From positions 1 to 20,067 of IMG/VR virus record IMGVR_UViG_3300025138_000511: 20,067 nucleotides of DNA; one strand, written 5' to 3'. The position numbers were made by a program, and so were the translations under genes. The notes beneath the pieces were generated by a model. The model saw only the letters and a list, made by a program, of their open reading frames with translations, did no database searches and had not been told where the DNA came from. Position 1 is the first letter of the stretch, and every line of letters starts with the position of its first letter. Positions 10,642 to 18,409 of this stretch are shown here, in pieces. Source of the stretch: a virus.

Positions 10642-13611
10642 CTAACTTACTAATTCACCATATCCTCTAGCAACATAATCAAATGTTCTATTAACTGTTG
10701 CATTGGAACTATTAAAAAACTCAATCGTAAATCCTGTAGCACTTTTATTTGTTATAGCATAGTAATCTCCACTTGTTAAGTTCTGTGCTGAAATTCCTAC
10801 ACCTTGAAGAACTTTAAACGCAGGGGAATAAGTAATTGCTTTACCACTTGTACTTGTACCACTTGCTATATCGGCTTCTGCTACAACTCTATCTGGCATA
10901 TCTACAGTAACCGATAATGCTGAAATTTGGTGGGTTGCTGTACCTTTTGTGCTTGTCATTTGGACTTTAAATTTATATGCCCTTGCTTTATAATCACCAA
11001 CAAAAAACTTTCTAAAATCTGTGTATGTAGGTGAACCAGATGGGTCACCTTCTGTGGTAGCAACTAATAATTCTGAATTCGTATCATCAAATTCTGATGG
11101 GTCACCATCAAAATCACCATCTCTATCATCAAAATTACCTGTGGCACTATCAAACAAATCAACAGAACTAAAGTTTGCAACATTCATATTTGCTGTAACT
11201 CGGCTTGTATAAACAGAACCTAAATCAATATGTGTATCAAATTCATATGTCCCAGAACTAGCAATATTACCTTGTCCTGCATCAAATAAACCACTTGCAT
11301 CATCAAAGTTACCTGCAACACTATCAAATAGATTAGATGTACCTAATTGAAGTTTATTATCCACAACTACAGTATTTGTTTTTGTTCCTGCAAAACTAGG
11401 ACTTTGTGTAGATGTTGCAACTAAATTTAAACCTTTTATACTTTCAATTATAGCAACTTTATTAACAGCATTTCTTGAAGGATTACCCACTTTATCCACA
11501 GCTTTAATAAAATATGTGCCTGTCATAGCAGGAACTATTACAGTATTTGCAGGTCTTGATACTTTATCAGCTAAATCAACTGAATTTGCATATGTCCCCC
11601 CACTTGTTTCCCTGCAATGCCTTATTCTATAATGTGATAAATCTAAATCTGAAACTGGTGTCCAACTTAAATGTGCTTCTGTTCCAATAATATTTACACT
11701 AAAATTAGTTACATCTTCTGGGGGTTCTGTTTTACCTACTACTTGGTGTTGAGAAGTTGCAAACGCAGAACGACTAACAGAAGTAACAGACCTTGCTCTA
11801 ACATCATAAATTACATTATCTTCAACATTAACTAATTCAAATTGTGATGAACTTCCACGACCTAAGTTTATAAACACGGAATCGGTTGACCTTTTAGCTT
11901 GTACCTCAAAATCTGTAATAAATCTATCTGTGGCTGTAACATTAACTAATAAAACTGCTATAGCTTCTTCATTTCTTGATCTTAGTTCATCTACTACTGA
12001 AACTGTTGGGGTTTGCACATTAAATGGATTAGGTAAAGTTGTGTCTATTATTTCTTCTAATGGGTCTTGTGTTCCAAAAGTATAATAACTATCTTGATGT
12101 TCTGATAAACTTAAACTAACAGAATGATCTGCATTTAAAGTCAAACCCTGCACTCTAAAAGGCTTTGCAGAAAATGCAGGTGTTGCGTGTGTAATATTCA
12201 CAATATCACCAATGGATAAATCTAATGCTGTTGCATCTGCTTTTAATGAAACATTTAAACTAGACCTTGACCTTCGTAATATTATTTCAGCCATTTCTTG
12301 TGCTTGAAATCTATTTGTAAACATAGAAAAATCAAATCTTCCTTCTAGCAATAAACCACCATCTTCGGCTAAAAGTGTTGCGTGTCTGTCTGCTTCAACT
12401 ATTAATTCTGGGTTTTCTACAGCAGGAGGAAATTGTGTTGAATCCGATTGATAATTTTTATCTGGGTTAATATAATTCACAATTACACGATTATATCTGG
12501 AGTTTTTGTTTTTACTTAAAACTGTAATACCACCTAATATATTATCTTCTGTTAATGTTATTGATGCAGAACCACTTGATTCAACTAATATTTTATATTT
12601 GCCAGATGAAAAGTTTAAATAAGACCTTGAACCCCTTACTAAGTCTTTTACATTATCTATAGCTTTTTTTGATGTATCTATAGCTATATGACTATTCATT
12701 AAATCAATAGTATTTGCAGATACAGGGTCACCAAAACCAATACCAAAAGCATTAATTAAAAATAAATCCCCCCCTAAAGGTTCAATTTGTGTATCACATA
12801 CATCACTTGCTGTTTGCCAATCTGCAAAATTACTATCAAAATAACTATCAGCTATACCCATTCCAAATCTATCATTTCTTAAATAATCTAATAATTGCAA
12901 TATTGGGTTGTCTGAATATGCCCAAGTTGAACTATCATTTTGTCTGTGGCTACCACTCCCACCAGTAACAGTTCCATCTAAATTGGGGTTATATACCTTT
13001 CTACCTTTAATTAAGGCTTGTACGTTTGGTATAGAGCCAAATTTATCTGCGTTCCATTCAAACCTTAAAGCTATATAAGCCAAACCTTGCAATTTATGTA
13101 GTGATGACCAAGTATTGGTTTCTTGCAATAAAGAAGATGAAGATTGTGTATCTGAACCAAAATGTCCTTCTACAGTTATTAAACTTTGTGATTCATCTGT
13201 GTCATAAAAGTTTTGATCTGAATTTGTTACAGTTCTTTGGACATTATCGGATATTACACCAGATAAATTTACCCTTTTATCATTAACATAAAGACATGTT
13301 ATTTCATCAATTTCGCCTTCACCTAAAACTAATGCCATATATAAATATTTATTATCATCTCCAAAAGTTTCTAAAAAAACAACATTACCACCAACTTTCC
13401 TTGTTCCATAAATAATAGGTATGTGAGCATTTGCACTAATTTTGTTTACTAAAACACCCTGTGCATTTCGGTCTGAATTGTTATCGCCAAAATCTGGAAT
13501 GTCTGGCATAGGTATTAACCAACCTATAACATCTTCTATTATATCCTCTATGCCATCAACAATATCGTCTATAATATCAATAATATCTTTGATAGGATTC
13601 CAACCACCCAT
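10642..13611 (-). CDS. gpJ-like tail tip / host-specificity protein, 989 aa
   Basis: The N-terminus has an Ile/Asp amphipathic stretch (DIIDIIDDIVDGIEDIIEDV), then the conserved entry IPIIYGTRKVGGNVVFLE (about 64-81), as in lambda J-type tip proteins. Residues about 430-500 resemble the hub domain (QAQEMAEIILRRSRSSLNVS; LDLSIGDIVNITH). A fibronectin-III-like domain lies at about 628-715 (TEAHLSWTPVSDLDLSHYRI). The C-terminal part is strand-rich with an Asp-rich repeated stretch at about 758-845. Such proteins form the central tip that contacts the receptor and opens the tail. Length is close to lambda gpJ (about 1130 residues). The GGAGG site is placed in the last codons of the GNAT gene, with a TAATG overlap. 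Confidence 0.88.
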   Translation of the reverse strand: MGGWNPIKDIIDIIDDIVDGIEDIIEDVIGWLIPMPDIPDFGDNNSDRNAQGVLVNKISANAHIPIIYGTRKVGGNVVFLETFGDDNKYLYMALVLGEGEIDEITCLYVNDKRVNLSGVISDNVQRTVTNSDQNFYDTDESQSLITVEGHFGSDTQSSSSLLQETNTWSSLHKLQGLAYIALRFEWNADKFGSIPNVQALIKGRKVYNPNLDGTVTGGSGSHRQNDSSTWAYSDNPILQLLDYLRNDRFGMGIADSYFDSNFADWQTASDVCDTQIEPLGGDLFLINAFGIGFGDPVSANTIDLMNSHIAIDTSKKAIDNVKDLVRGSRSYLNFSSGKYKILVESSGSASITLTEDNILGGITVLSKNKNSRYNRVIVNYINPDKNYQSDSTQFPPAVENPELIVEADRHATLLAEDGGLLLEGRFDFSMFTNRFQAQEMAEIILRRSRSSLNVSLKADATALDLSIGDIVNITHATPAFSAKPFRVQGLTLNADHSVSLSLSEHQDSYYTFGTQDPLEEIIDTTLPNPFNVQTPTVSVVDELRSRNEEAIAVLLVNVTATDRFITDFEVQAKRSTDSVFINLGRGSSSQFELVNVEDNVIYDVRARSVTSVSRSAFATSQHQVVGKTEPPEDVTNFSVNIIGTEAHLSWTPVSDLDLSHYRIRHCRETSGGTYANSVDLADKVSRPANTVIVPAMTGTYFIKAVDKVGNPSRNAVNKVAIIESIKGLNLVATSTQSPSFAGTKTNTVVVDNKLQLGTSNLFDSVAGNFDDASGLFDAGQGNIASSGTYEFDTHIDLGSVYTSRVTANMNVANFSSVDLFDSATGNFDDRDGDFDGDPSEFDDTNSELLVATTEGDPSGSPTYTDFRKFFVGDYKARAYKFKVQMTSTKGTATHQISALSVTVDMPDRVVAEADIASGTSTSGKAITYSPAFKVLQGVGISAQNLTSGDYYAITNKSATGFTIEFFNSSNATVNRTFDYVARGYGELVS

Positions 13612-14054
13612 TAGATTAACCTCCAGTTACTACCCATATGTTTAAACCCTAATTTTTCAAAAACTGGGTCTACACCTAAACCAGATGTAATAGATAAAAC
13701 TATTGGCAAATCTTCTGAACCTTTTTTTACAGTATTAATTAAATTTTTTACTAATTTATAATTTCTGAAATCTTTTTTAACATAAATTAATTGTATTTGC
13801 ATAATTTGGCTTTTACTAAAAAAATATTCAGATTTATTAAACATACAACAACCAATTAATTTGTCTTTGTCTAAATCATTAACTAGAATTATTTTCCCTT
13901 TTTCTAAAATAGTATTAATAAAATATTTTAATTTTTTGATATCAATTTCATCTGGGTATAAATCAACTAAATCTGTATTTTTATATTCAACTAATAAATT
14001 ATATATTTTTTCAATATCTGTTTTTTCTGCATAATATAAATGGGTACTTGTCAT
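13611..14054 (-). CDS. GNAT-fold acetyltransferase-like protein in the tail module
   Basis: A 147-residue protein with the layout of a GNAT N-acetyltransferase: helices at 10-60, the strand pair IILVNDLDKDKLIGCCMF, then the motif-A region IMQIQLIYVKKDFRNYKLVK with a following helix. The usual acetyl-CoA pyrophosphate loop R/Q-x-x-G-x-G/A is weak; here it reads KDFRNYKLV, so the loop Gly residues are missing. The end (GVDPVFEKLGFKHMGSNWRL) matches the typical 'FYEKLGFK' C-terminal strand. Single GNAT genes occur between tail genes in several phages; targets are unknown. The degenerate loop leaves open a non-catalytic, structural role. It overlaps its upstream neighbour as ATGA. Codon use looks more AT-rich than the flanking tail genes. 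Confidence 0.7.
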   Translation of the reverse strand: MTSTHLYYAEKTDIEKIYNLLVEYKNTDLVDLYPDEIDIKKLKYFINTILEKGKIILVNDLDKDKLIGCCMFNKSEYFFSKSQIMQIQLIYVKKDFRNYKLVKNLINTVKKGSEDLPIVLSITSGLGVDPVFEKLGFKHMGSNWRLI

Positions 14055-14617: not shown

Positions 14618-15226
14618 TTACAATGCCTCTATAACATCAAACTCATATGTAAATAATAAATTACCTTCATTATCATTTTGACCTGTTGCAAATTCTTGGG
14701 CATCACTTGTTAAATGAACATTAAATGGAACTGAATCATAAGTAACAGAACTATCATTTGCTAAAGCAGTTCTTAAAGGTGGCTCTATAGTAATTGTTGA
14801 AGCATTACTTGAACTTGTTGCATCTTCAACAACCATATAAACCTTATCATGTGCAAATTTTATTAAATCACCTGCTTTTAATCTACCTGCACCATCACCT
14901 GCAAAACCATCTATAGCTATTGTGGTATCGGCTACAGCATGAACCCCATTTACTAGCAATGTATTAGTTTCATTGCCCTGTGCGTTTAAATAACTTGGGA
15001 ATGTCACAGTAAAGTTTTCTTGTCTTGATCTTTGTTTCATAATAAATGCCATGATAGGTGCAAATTCTGACCTTTTCATAGGTGGATATTGTACTGTAAA
15101 ACTAAACTTCTGACCTTGAATTTGCCTTCTAAAAGTCTTTCCACTATCTGTTTGAGATAACAAAGTCTTTTGATTGCTCCTAAAATTAACAGCAGTAAAA
15201 TTAGTATTTGGTAATGCACCACTCAT
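14618..15226 (-). CDS. Distal tail (Dit-like) protein, 202 aa
   Basis: A 202-residue beta-rich protein. The first part (TFRRQIQGQKFSFTVQYPPM, about 30-49) and MKRSEFAPIMAFIMKQRSRQ (49-68) carry the pattern of small tail-tip proteins, in which a strand with 'Q-x-F-x-F-x-V-x-Y/F-P-P-L' is followed by a helix 'x-x-E-x-x-x-L-x-A-F'. The middle (GDGAGRLKAGDLIKFA) is a typical 'G-L-x-x-G-D-x-I' beta turn segment shared with marine phage tail proteins, often with a K-V-Y-x-V strand as here. I call it a distal tail or hub protein on this basis and on its place right after the tape measure. Its ATG overlaps the tape measure stop as ATGA. Confidence 0.65.
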   Translation of the reverse strand: MSGALPNTNFTAVNFRSNQKTLLSQTDSGKTFRRQIQGQKFSFTVQYPPMKRSEFAPIMAFIMKQRSRQENFTVTFPSYLNAQGNETNTLLVNGVHAVADTTIAIDGFAGDGAGRLKAGDLIKFAHDKVYMVVEDATSSSNASTITIEPPLRTALANDSSVTYDSVPFNVHLTSDAQEFATGQNDNEGNLLFTYEFDVIEAL

Positions 15227-17334
15227 ATTATCGCCATCTTACCTTTTTCGTTAACAGCACTATTAATCATATTTACTATAGTACCTCTTGAATTTACTAA
15301 TAATTCATTAAATCCTCTAGCATCAACTGTGCTTATATTAAAGTTTACTGTTACAGCTTTACCCATGTCACCTAATTTACCATTCGGCACTACATTTGAT
15401 GCTCTATCTGGGACAACTAATTCTGCTCCTGCTTCTCCGACTAAATAAGGTTGTCCTTGATTCATACGACCACCTTGTTTACGACCTTGATATTTTTGTG
15501 ACATTATTGTGGCAATTTGAACTGCACCAAAAGCACCTATTGCTATAGCTAAAGGTATATTACCACTTGATAAAGCTTTAGTTACACCTGTAGCTGTATT
15601 CATAATGCCTTCTGCTATATTAAAGGCTTTATTTAATGCAAAAGCTTGTTTATTGCTTTTTGCCATTTCATTTAGACCTTCCCTACCTACTTTTACTGCC
15701 AAATCAGTTTTTGCTTTACCAGACATTTTTTCTAAATCTATTTCACCTGCCTTGCCAGATTTTATTAAATTAAAATTGTCATTAAATAGTTTTTTCTGAA
15801 TTTCCATTTCTTTTTGTGCTGTTTCATGAGCAAGAGTAATTCTATCATCTGCACTAATTCTTCTTAATTCAGCTAATAGTTCGTCTTGCTCCATAATTGC
15901 ATTAATTTTATTTGTAAAAGCTTGTTTTTCAACATCAGCTTCTAGTTTTGCCATTTCATTTAGACCTGCTAATTTTTCTTCTTTTGAAAATGTATGTTCA
16001 AATGAACCCATAATTGCATCTTGACCTAACATAGTGCCGTCAGTCACTTTTAATTTTTCGTCATTTAACTTTTTAACTGCATCTGTTTGTGCTATTATTG
16101 CACCCGTATTTATGGCTCTTATTTCTGAATCTAAAGCAATATGACTTTGACTTAGCTTATATTGTGCTATTTCTTTATCTACTGCTTCTATTTGTTTTTC
16201 AAATTGCTCAATAGTAGTTTTGCTAGTGAAAGTTCTGTTCTTCTCGGCACTATCTAATGCTTCTAAAAGCATCTGTTTCTTTTTAAACAATTCATTAAGT
16301 TTTTTCATAGGGTCTACTGCTTTAGCATTGGCATCACTAAGCATTGATATACTTGTACCTAATGCTAATAAAAAACCTACTAAGTTAAGTTTTGATAGCC
16401 TAGAAAATGCAACCAAAGCAACTTTAGCTTTTCCAATATTGATTGCTAATGTAAAAAATGCTCCTGCCAACTTAAAGACAATAATACCCATACCTAATGC
16501 TTTTAGCACTTCAAAATTATCTTTTAAAAAGGCTACCGATTCACCTGCAAAAATTACTGCATCTGACAATCCTTTTCCCACAGATTTAGCTATATCATCA
16601 ATGGTTTTTTGATTGTCTGCTAGAGCCTTGTCTAATGCACCAAATTCTTGTTTTAAACCAACAAAAAAACTTTCTGCTATTATCTTTTGAAAGTTGAAGA
16701 ACTTATCCCCAACCATTGAAAGAGTACCCTCTAGGGTTTTGGCTAGGTCATTTGTAGCACCTGCCATTGTTCCATTTTTACCAAAAACTCTTTCAAATGC
16801 TTCTTCTGTTTCTTTTGCTGATACTTTTGCACCTGCACTAAAACCTAATAAATCCCTAACACCTCTTTCTCTAAATATATCAGCACTAGCTATTCCTGCT
16901 GAAAATGATCTTGATATTTGTTCTGATGCTGTTCTAAAATCTAACCCAGTAACAGATGCAACATTACCAGTAATTTCAAGCATTTTGGCTAATTCGTTTG
17001 CATCTTTAGATACAATCGCTAAACTTCCTGCACCTGCTTGAATTTGCTCTAAGCTAAAAGGTACTTTAGATGCAAACTTTGACATTACATCAAATGCTTT
17101 TGCACCCTCCTCAACACTACCAAATAAAAATTTTAATCTAATTTGTAATGATTCAACTGATTTACCAACATCTATAAAAGACTTTATGGCAACCCCTGCA
17201 CCTAAACCAATTAGGGCATTTTTTAAATTGAAAACTGAACTTTTAAGACCATCTACACCTTTTGTAGCAGAATTCATAGCTTGTCTGGTCTTATCTTTAG
17301 CTACAATATCTATATTTACTTGTTTTGTTGCCAC
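15223..17334 (-). CDS. Tail tape measure protein, 703 aa
   Basis: A long helical protein that sets tail length. The start (VNIDIVAKDKTRQAMNSATK) and the following GVAIKSFIDVGKSVESLQIR are typical of tape measures, and the segment through about 190 (PFSLEQIQAGAGSLAIVSKD; TGLDFRTASEQISRSFSAGI; RERGVRDLLG) is the TMP N-terminal domain. Hydrophobic segments lie at about 275-306, 317-333 and 592-612, which could insert into the membrane during DNA ejection. The end (RKQGGRMNQGQPYLVGEAGA ELVVP split here) is the 'G-G-x-x-x-x-G-x-P-x-x-V-G-E-x-G-x-E' signature common near TMP C-termini. The start is GTG 17334-17332, one base inside the stop of the GT frame (TAGTG). At about 1.5 angstrom per residue the tail would be near 105 nm. 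Confidence 0.92.
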   Translation of the reverse strand: MATKQVNIDIVAKDKTRQAMNSATKGVDGLKSSVFNLKNALIGLGAGVAIKSFIDVGKSVESLQIRLKFLFGSVEEGAKAFDVMSKFASKVPFSLEQIQAGAGSLAIVSKDANELAKMLEITGNVASVTGLDFRTASEQISRSFSAGIASADIFRERGVRDLLGFSAGAKVSAKETEEAFERVFGKNGTMAGATNDLAKTLEGTLSMVGDKFFNFQKIIAESFFVGLKQEFGALDKALADNQKTIDDIAKSVGKGLSDAVIFAGESVAFLKDNFEVLKALGMGIIVFKLAGAFFTLAINIGKAKVALVAFSRLSKLNLVGFLLALGTSISMLSDANAKAVDPMKKLNELFKKKQMLLEALDSAEKNRTFTSKTTIEQFEKQIEAVDKEIAQYKLSQSHIALDSEIRAINTGAIIAQTDAVKKLNDEKLKVTDGTMLGQDAIMGSFEHTFSKEEKLAGLNEMAKLEADVEKQAFTNKINAIMEQDELLAELRRISADDRITLAHETAQKEMEIQKKLFNDNFNLIKSGKAGEIDLEKMSGKAKTDLAVKVGREGLNEMAKSNKQAFALNKAFNIAEGIMNTATGVTKALSSGNIPLAIAIGAFGAVQIATIMSQKYQGRKQGGRMNQGQPYLVGEAGAELVVPDRASNVVPNGKLGDMGKAVTVNFNISTVDARGFNELLVNSRGTIVNMINSAVNEKGKMAII

Positions 17335-17854
17335 TATCTTTGAGCCTTTGCTAGTCTTTGTTGTCTTTCATGTTCATCATTTTGAATTTGAAAGTATGCT
17401 AACCACATATTAAACTCATCTACTGACATTTGCAAGATTTCGGAAACAGTCTTGTGTAGCTTTTCGGCTAACCCAAAAATATTATGTAATTCTACATCAT
17501 TTCTAAGTTTTTTTTATTATCTTCAATATCTGTGTTTCCAGTTCCCATTATCTTTGTGGCAACATCTGCAATAACATTAGTATCAGCTTTAGTTTTAAAT
17601 GCTAAAACATGACTTCCATTAAACATTTTATTACCATCTTTTGTTAATGCCTTTTCTATAATAACATCAATCAAAACAATTAAATCTGTGCCACTAGCAC
17701 CTTTGAAAATCTTTTGTTTTTCAAGCATATTGAAAGGTTTACAAAATATAGCTTTATCGCCTACTAAATCCCACTCTGGCACTTCAATTATTTGAGTGTC
17801 GAGGGTGCTGAAATGATCTCTAATACCATCAAAATAATCAATTTTATCTGTCAT
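17334..17854 (-). CDS. Tail assembly chaperone, -1 frameshift fusion (gpGT-like), 173 aa
   Basis: The zero frame to codon 116 (AAC, 17509-17507) joins the -1 frame from CTT (17507-17505) to TAG (17336-17334). The extension is 57 residues: it starts LRNDVELHNIFGLAEKLHKT and ends in VDEFNMWLAYFQIQNDEHER QQRLAKAQR (split here). The 'E-F-x-x-W-x-A-Y-F-x-I' segment is the hallmark of the T part of tail chaperones and of related small tail proteins. No ATG, GTG or TTG with a ribosome site opens this frame by itself, and it ends exactly one base into the tape measure start. By analogy with lambda the fusion is made in a small share of translation events and its T part binds tail-tube subunits. The stretch 17335-17491 would otherwise be an unexplained gap in a region with none. 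Confidence 0.85.
17492..17854 (-). CDS. Tail assembly chaperone, zero-frame product (lambda gpG-like), 120 aa
   Basis: Directly after the tail-tube gene (TAAATG junction) comes a 120-residue acidic protein: YFDGIRDHFSTLDTQIIEVP, EWDLVGDKAIFCKPFNMLEK (about 28-47), then GASGTDLIVLIDVIIEKALT and KMFNGSHVLAFKTKADTNVI. The middle 'W-x-x-x-G-x-x-x-x-x-K-P-x-x-x-x-E-K' pattern is that of phage tail assembly chaperones encoded just before the tape measure. By analogy with lambda gpG it would keep the tape measure soluble and recruit tail-tube subunits. The frame ends at TAG 17494-17492, twelve bases beyond an A AAA AAC heptamer at which ribosomes can shift. Confidence 0.85.
   Translation of the reverse strand: MTDKIDYFDGIRDHFSTLDTQIIEVPEWDLVGDKAIFCKPFNMLEKQKIFKGASGTDLIVLIDVIIEKALTKDGNKMFNGSHVLAFKTKADTNVIADVATKIMGTGNTDIEDNKKNLEMM
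17507..17513 (-). promoter_or_regulatory. A AAA AAC slippery site for -1 ribosomal frameshifting
   Basis: On the minus strand a run of eight A and then C (17515-17507) is read in the zero frame as AAA (codon 114), AAA (115), AAC (116). The last seven bases form A AAA AAC, an X XXY YYZ heptamer on which both tRNAs can re-pair after slipping one base back. About ten bases downstream TGTAG (from 17497) can pair with CTACA, and an inner TAGC/GCTA stem lies within that loop; this stimulator is weak and uncertain. No clear Shine-Dalgarno-like stimulator is seen upstream. Confidence 0.85.
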
Positions 17855-18241
17855 TTAAACAGTACCGATAGTAAGACCACCATTGCCTTGTACTGATACA
17901 GTTCTAGTTGTAACACCATCTAATGTAACACCTACTGACATTCCAGTTACAATACCAGTTCCAGAGAACTTTCTATCTCCAGAAGCATTACCCTCTGGTA
18001 AAAATGCAAATGTAAGTTCTGCACCTTGTACTAGATTAGTTTGTGCTGTATCTGTTTCATCAAAGTTCATATCAATACTTGCTGTATAAGTACCCCTACC
18101 AACTATGAAAGATTTCATTGAATTACCTAAAGGTGTATCTTCAACAACGTCTTGGGTAGTATCTACTGTGAAACCAGTCGCATTACCTAAAGTATCACTA
18201 CCTATAGTAACAACTCCCTCTTTTCCATGATGTGTAGCCAT
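17855..18241 (-). CDS. Major tail tube protein, 128 aa
   Basis: A 128-residue beta-rich protein with the features of a siphophage tail-tube subunit: GKEGVVTIGSDTLGNATGFT near the start, TTQDVVEDTPLG (about 28-39), then SFIVGRGTYTASIDMNFDET and a final strand GGLTIGTV. The 'G-x-x-x-x-x-T-x-x-x-x-V-E-D-T-x-L-G' and 'T-x-S-I-D-x-x-x-D' patterns are widespread among tail tubes of marine and other phages. It would form stacked hexamers around the tape measure. Its place between the tail terminator block and the G/GT chaperone is the standard order. An AAGGAG site lies in the end of the preceding small gene, whose TAA directly precedes this ATG. Confidence 0.85.
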   Translation of the reverse strand: MATHHGKEGVVTIGSDTLGNATGFTVDTTQDVVEDTPLGNSMKSFIVGRGTYTASIDMNFDETDTAQTNLVQGAELTFAFLPEGNASGDRKFSGTGIVTGMSVGVTLDGVTTRTVSVQGNGGLTIGTV

Positions 18242-18409
18242 TTATAACTCCTTATCGTTAGCTTCATTAGTTTCTTTTATTTTTTCAGTTTTTTTAACAA
18301 CTGCTTTTTCATTTCCTATAGTAAACCCATTTTTCTTAAAATGCTCTACATGGTCTTCTGAACATTTTATAATAGTTTCGCCTTTTTTCATAGTAACATT
18401 TTTAGCCAT
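18242..18409 (-). CDS. Small tail-module protein, 55 aa
   Basis: This 56-codon frame fills the 167-base space between the tail terminator and the tail-tube gene. ATG 18409-18407 overlaps the preceding TAA (TAATG), and TAA 18244-18242 abuts the tail-tube ATG. The product begins MAKNVTMKKGETIIKCSEDH and continues VEHFKKNGFTIGNEKAVVKK with a Lys/Glu/Asn tail. A 'G-E-x-x-x-x-x-E-D-H-V-x-x-F-x-x-x-G-F' pattern is typical of very small phage proteins found near head-tail joining genes, similar in outline to head fibre or Rho-N-like mini domains, but I cannot name it. Probably a minor structural or assembly protein. Confidence 0.7.
   Translation of the reverse strand: MAKNVTMKKGETIIKCSEDHVEHFKKNGFTIGNEKAVVKKTEKIKETNEANDKEL

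What the first reader, a model, noticed from the sequence alone, without database searches (positions are those of the whole stretch)
17334..17854. Programmed -1 frameshift linking G-like and T-like frames of the tail assembly chaperone
Seen: an A AAA AAC heptamer in the correct phase at codons 114-116 of the 120-residue frame, a 57-codon open -1 frame from that point, and a TAG placed exactly at the tape measure start. The -1 product carries EFNMWLAYFQI, a T-type segment. Known: G/GT frameshifting before the tape measure gene is conserved in long-tailed phages. Inferred: this phage makes gpG- and gpGT-like proteins from one start. An ordinary gene caller would leave the 157-base T part unannotated.
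Basis: partly seen in the sequence, partly recalled or inferred. Interest (0 to 1): 0.75.

Follow-up and report, generated by a model that had tools for sequence, protein, structure and literature searches.

The report
Frameshifted tail chaperone of marine phage
A marine phage, related to viruses of the ocean bacterium Pelagibacter, very probably makes two versions of its tail-building helper protein from one gene by letting some ribosomes slip back one base; this is a well-known phage trick, here found in a lineage whose database entries leave the second half unannotated.

Summary
On the minus strand, a 120-codon frame (17854-17492) carries A AAA AAC in slippery phase (17513-17507). A 57-codon -1 frame follows, and its TAG (17336-17334) overlaps the tape-measure GTG. 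The joined 173-aa product matches a tail-assembly-chaperone family over its whole length (52 bits, against 31 and 14 for the halves). The predicted fold of the first half resembles HK97's chaperone.

The heptamer and frame relation are kept in all 370 related loci scored. The -1 frame is under purifying selection (dN/dS 0.12-0.24) and has no usable start of its own. This is an ordinary G/GT system, left unannotated in four GenBank pelagiphage relatives and annotated as a joined gene in Rhodobacter phage RcRhea.

Stop identity changes repeatedly while the stop is kept, so it looks selected. Published phage averages for that distance are 26-36 nt. The window's own clade has lost this stop; its frame ends four codons later.

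Frameshifting itself is inferred; nothing here was measured experimentally.

The parts
17492..17854 (-). G-like tail assembly chaperone, 120 aa, zero-frame product
   Evidence: phrog_16513, E 4.5e-7; predicted fold closest to HK97 tail assembly chaperone 2ob9, prob 0.99, E 0.014
17507..17513 (-). slippery heptamer A AAA AAC (within an 8-A run), codons 114-116
   Evidence: kept in 370/370 loci as A AAA AAC, A AAA AAG or G GGA AAC
17492..17494 (-). zero-frame stop TAG, four codons after the heptamer; most relatives have the stop directly after it
17337..17507 (-). T-like -1 extension, 57 codons, open from the slip to TAG
   Evidence: dN/dS 0.151 in its group; A14, L17, W35 invariant across 11 phages
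17334..17336 (-). stop TAG of the -1 frame, overlapping the tape-measure GTG by one base
15223..17334 (-). tape measure protein, 703 aa
   Evidence: phrog_3336 E 5.2e-17; Pfam TMP_3 E 2.2e-9, just below its cut-off
17855..18241 (-). major tail (tube) protein, 128 aa, directly upstream; in lambda the T domain binds the tail tube protein
   Evidence: phrog_10528 E 1.4e-10

Best explanation
This is the G/GT tail assembly chaperone gene of a long-tailed phage related to the Pelagibacter HTVC phages. Most ribosomes end at the TAG at 17492 and make a 120-aa G protein. A minority slip back one base on A AAA AAC (tRNA-Lys and tRNA-Asn re-pair on AAA AAA) and make a 173-aa GT protein ending at the tape-measure start. 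By the lambda model, G coats the tape measure protein and the rare GT recruits tail tube subunits. Gene order, frames, conservation and homology are shown here. The slip, its efficiency and the chaperone activity are inferred.
For: Heptamer in phase and a 57-codon -1 frame. The joined product scores 52.1 bits to phrog_16513 (tail assembly chaperone) over profile 8-155 of 160, against 31.1 and 13.7 for the halves. 80/80 close relatives keep it, as do 330/330 loci in four groups and 40/40 in a fifth. T-frame dN/dS is 0.12-0.24, and no stops occur in the T frame while the other two frames hold 2.7-5.5 stops per sequence. G fold: HK97 tail chaperone 2ob9 is the top PDB match (prob 0.99) and the RcRhea tail assembly chaperone is the second viral match. 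RcRhea annotates both a short and a joined CDS at this place. Context is tail terminator, tube, this gene, tape measure, distal tail.
Against: No experiment. No downstream RNA structure beyond control (mean z -0.28 downstream, -0.55 in an upstream control), and no Shine-Dalgarno-like stimulator in the window's group (0 of 18), so the slip would rest on the heptamer alone. The Pfam Phage_tail_T match is below its cut-off (15.6 against 25.9 bits). The PDB fold match has E 0.014 and TM about 0.5.
Confidence: 0.95

Rival explanations
1. Transcriptional slippage: RNA polymerase adds an A in the 8-A run and part of the mRNA carries G and T in one frame (junction NKKK-LRND instead of NKKN-LRND).
For: The window has an A run of 8, and such runs can slip in AT-rich genomes (general knowledge).
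Against: The A run is only 6 in 61 loci and 7 in 147 loci, while the heptamer phase is kept in all. RcRhea uses G GGA AAC with no long run. What is conserved is the tandem codon-slip motif, not run length.
Confidence: 0.03
2. T is a separate gene started internally rather than by frameshifting.
For: ATG and TTG codons occur inside the T frame. Start codons at residues 24-26 are common in three of the four groups, and GenBank phi3LM21 annotates a short separate ORF here.
Against: Those starts would cut away the first half of the conserved domain (A14, L17 invariant). 9 of 27 representatives in the Roseobacter-phage group have no start codon at all in the T frame. A Shine-Dalgarno motif precedes the first T-frame ATG in only 0-1 loci per group.
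Confidence: 0.02
3. The -1 frame is a decayed or accidental open frame.
For: In-phase heptamers are common in this AT-rich window (58).
Against: Purifying selection on the T frame and universal conservation of the frame relation.
Confidence: 0.005

Closest known systems
Lambda G/GT tail assembly chaperone (reviewed in PMC5009743; Levin 1993, Xu 2004, 2013, 2014 cited there)
   Same: Gene order tube, G, -1 T extension, tape measure; -1 slip near the 3' end of G; T-like C-terminal part.
   Different: Heptamer A AAA AAC instead of lambda's GGGAAAG (from my own knowledge); sequence hardly related (Pfam T match below cut-off).
Rhodobacter phage RcRhea tail assembly chaperone (KR935216, RCRHEA_11 and RCRHEA_12)
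   Same: About 28% identity over 86% of the joined product; same frame relation; annotated as short and joined CDS.
   Different: Heptamer G GGA AAC followed directly by TGA.
Pelagibacter phages HTVC202P, HTVC026P, HTVC111P, HTVC112P
   Same: 34-39% identity over about 91-92% of the joined product, same heptamer type, -1 frame ending at the tape-measure start.
   Different: Zero-frame stop directly after the heptamer; the T part is not annotated in GenBank.
HK97 tail assembly chaperone (PDB 2ob9)
   Same: Top structural match of the predicted G fold.
   Different: 12% identity, TM about 0.5.

Membership tests
Tail assembly chaperone G/GT with programmed -1 frameshift | Gene lies between major tail protein and tape measure protein | tested here: met
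[quoted passage not shown]
Tail assembly chaperone G/GT with programmed -1 frameshift | Heptamer and frame relation conserved in relatives | tested here: met
Tail assembly chaperone G/GT with programmed -1 frameshift | Homology of the joined product to known chaperones | tested here: met
   phrog_16513 E 1.6e-13 over both halves; RcRhea joined protein
Tail assembly chaperone G/GT with programmed -1 frameshift | T part resembles lambda-type T (Pfam PF06223) | tested here: inconclusive
   15.6 bits, cut-off 25.9; only 1 of 11 members matches
Tail assembly chaperone G/GT with programmed -1 frameshift | Chaperone fold of G | tested here: met
   Model pLDDT 77.6; best PDB match HK97 chaperone, prob 0.99 but E 0.014 and TM about 0.5
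Tail assembly chaperone G/GT with programmed -1 frameshift | Both products made, in a set ratio, and needed for tail assembly | not testable with these tools
   Needs reporter assay, mass spectrometry or mutants

The most novel reading that the evidence does not exclude
In this marine chaperone family the stop codon directly after the slippery heptamer is a selected part of the signal. With the stop in the A site, release factor and -1 slip compete, so the G:GT ratio is set by termination rather than by an RNA structure. The window's clade, which lost the adjacent stop, would be a natural variant that lost this control.
Probability: 0.25. Interest if true: 0.5.

Novelty: new member of a known kind. 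Interest (0 to 1): 0.27.

Why it matters
It fixes an annotation gap in marine phages: the 57-codon T domain is missing from the GenBank records of four Pelagibacter relatives, and two of them carry a wrong-strand ORF there instead. The family-wide stop directly after the slip site is a compact natural data set for asking whether release factors tune -1 frameshifting in bacteria, which the paper I found tested with an artificial stop at the HIV-1 site (PMC4373837).

Tried and rejected
A profile scan with the 11-sequence G alignment could not be run (no stretch conserved enough). A prophage search of genome contigs with the Sinorhizobium phage G found nothing. A search with RcRhea G found only one locus, a 100% match. 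Rfam gave no match in the window. Downstream stimulatory RNA structure: z-scores were no clearly better than an upstream control in any of four groups, so not supported. Upstream Shine-Dalgarno stimulator: absent in the window's group and in the HTVC202P group; a GAGGA motif ending 6 nt before the heptamer is frequent in the HTVC111P and Roseobacter-phage groups (12/15, 26/27), where it may only encode Glu-Glu, so it was not used. Literature searches found no paper on frameshifting in pelagiphage chaperones, but only open-licence papers are held.

Full report
Observation. The window is 31.5% G+C and is an IMG/VR virus record. On the minus strand the ORF 17854-17492 encodes 120 aa. The heptamer A AAA AAC lies at 17513-17507 in the phase required for tandem -1 slippage. 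The -1 frame from there holds 57 codons and ends with TAG at 17336-17334, one base overlapping the GTG of the 703-aa tape measure frame. Heptamers alone are cheap here: 58 lie in phase in 35 genes. Only this one opens a -1 frame that runs well past its gene's own stop.

Identity. The neighbours are, in order, tail completion/neck protein, tail terminator, a 55-aa unknown, major tail protein, this gene, tape measure protein and distal tail protein. The zero-frame product alone scores 31 bits to phrog_16513 (tail assembly chaperone), the -1 part 14 bits, and the joined product 52 bits over nearly the whole profile. The T part alone also matches phrog_337 (tail protein, E 7.7e-5) and, below threshold, Pfam Phage_tail_T. 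An AlphaFold model of G (pLDDT 77.6) has the HK97 tail assembly chaperone as its best PDB match (prob 0.99, E 0.014, TM about 0.5). Its second match among viral models is the RcRhea tail assembly chaperone.

Relatives. All 80 close IMG/VR relatives keep heptamer, phase and -1 frame; in one of them, L071, the contig ends inside T. Among named phages the joined product matches Pelagibacter phages HTVC202P, 026P, 111P and 112P (34-39% identity), Sinorhizobium phi3LM21, DSL-LC06, Rhodobacter RcRhea and Roseobacter CRP phages. Each of the eleven examined has an in-phase heptamer (A AAA AAC, A AAA AAG or G GGA AAC) and a -1 T frame. Across four groups 330 of 330 loci with a T match keep it, and 40 of 40 in a fifth group. 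In non-overlapping sequence the T frame has dN/dS of 0.12-0.24 and no stops, while the other two frames hold 2.7-5.5 stops per sequence. RcRhea is annotated with a short and a joined CDS. The four Pelagibacter phages leave T unannotated, and HTVC111P and HTVC112P carry a wrong-strand ORF there.

Mechanism. A separate T start is unlikely: start codons mostly lie inside the conserved domain or are absent, and almost none has a Shine-Dalgarno motif. Transcriptional slippage is unlikely as the shared mechanism, because the A run is only 6 long in 61 loci and absent in G GGA AAC. Downstream RNA structure is not clearly above control. The most likely process is -1 ribosomal slippage on the bare heptamer, giving G and, rarely, GT. 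The roles of G and GT are taken from lambda, where a 30:1 ratio is crucial for tail assembly (PMC5009743).

In 336 of 370 loci the zero-frame stop directly follows the heptamer. After removing near-duplicates (over 8% difference) it is 82 of 88, and 23 of 24 in the fifth group. The -1 frame fixes only a Leu or Val there. The codon choice that yields a stop is over-used: CTA in 15 of 17 Leu codons of the window's group against 25% of CTN in background; CTA or CTG in 27 of 27 Roseobacter-phage-group representatives against 40%; GTA in all 14 Val codons of the HTVC111P group against 31%. On trees the stop's identity changes repeatedly (TAA, TAG, TGA), with 12 changes and no loss in two groups and 7 stop/non-stop changes in all five groups. 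Sequences are related, so these counts are not independent trials. PRFect reports average heptamer-to-stop distances of 26 nt in SEA-PHAGES and 36 nt in the Xu phages (PMC10885494). [quoted passage not shown] In E. coli an artificial stop after the HIV-1 site lowered frameshifting, and RF2 overexpression abolished it (PMC4373837). So the adjacent stop may tune the G:GT ratio through release factor; it may equally just trim G. The window's clade has CTT AGA instead, so its zero frame reads on for LEMM before TAG.

Verdict. Observation confirmed, interpretation supported, known kind of system. Interest is low to moderate, carried mainly by the stop-adjacent architecture of the relatives.

Noticed in passing
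relatives of 17507-17513 (e.g. L082-L085, L087-L092, L334-L373): Zero-frame stop directly after the slippery heptamer in 336 of 370 loci, with TAA, TAG and TGA interchanging; lost in the window's clade.
   Followed up: yes
HTVC111P gp45 (L084:2894-3046) and HTVC112P gp41 (L085:2894-3040): Antisense ORFs annotated over the T part, probably spurious, because the conserved -1 frame on the other strand is what is under selection and gene callers miss it.
   Followed up: partly
loci of the HTVC111P, Roseobacter-phage and DSL-LC06 groups: A GAGGA Shine-Dalgarno-like motif ends 6 nt before the heptamer, with GAG codons above background (26/27 against 49%; 12/15 against 37%); absent in the window's group.
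   Followed up: partly
L036, L046, L048, L054, L062, L064, L065, L067, L078, L079: In some close relatives the T frame ends with TAA in a different context, so the TAG/GTG overlap with the tape measure start is not universal.
   Followed up: no
13611-14054: A 147-aa frame inside the tail module looks like an acetyltransferase by eye; the matching HTVC111P region includes a gene annotated 'toxin-activating lysine-acyltransferase'.
   Followed up: no
18242-18409: A 55-aa gene between tail terminator and tube protein with no PHROG match (Pfam only a sub-threshold hit); small ORFs sit at a similar place in the Pelagibacter phages.
   Followed up: no
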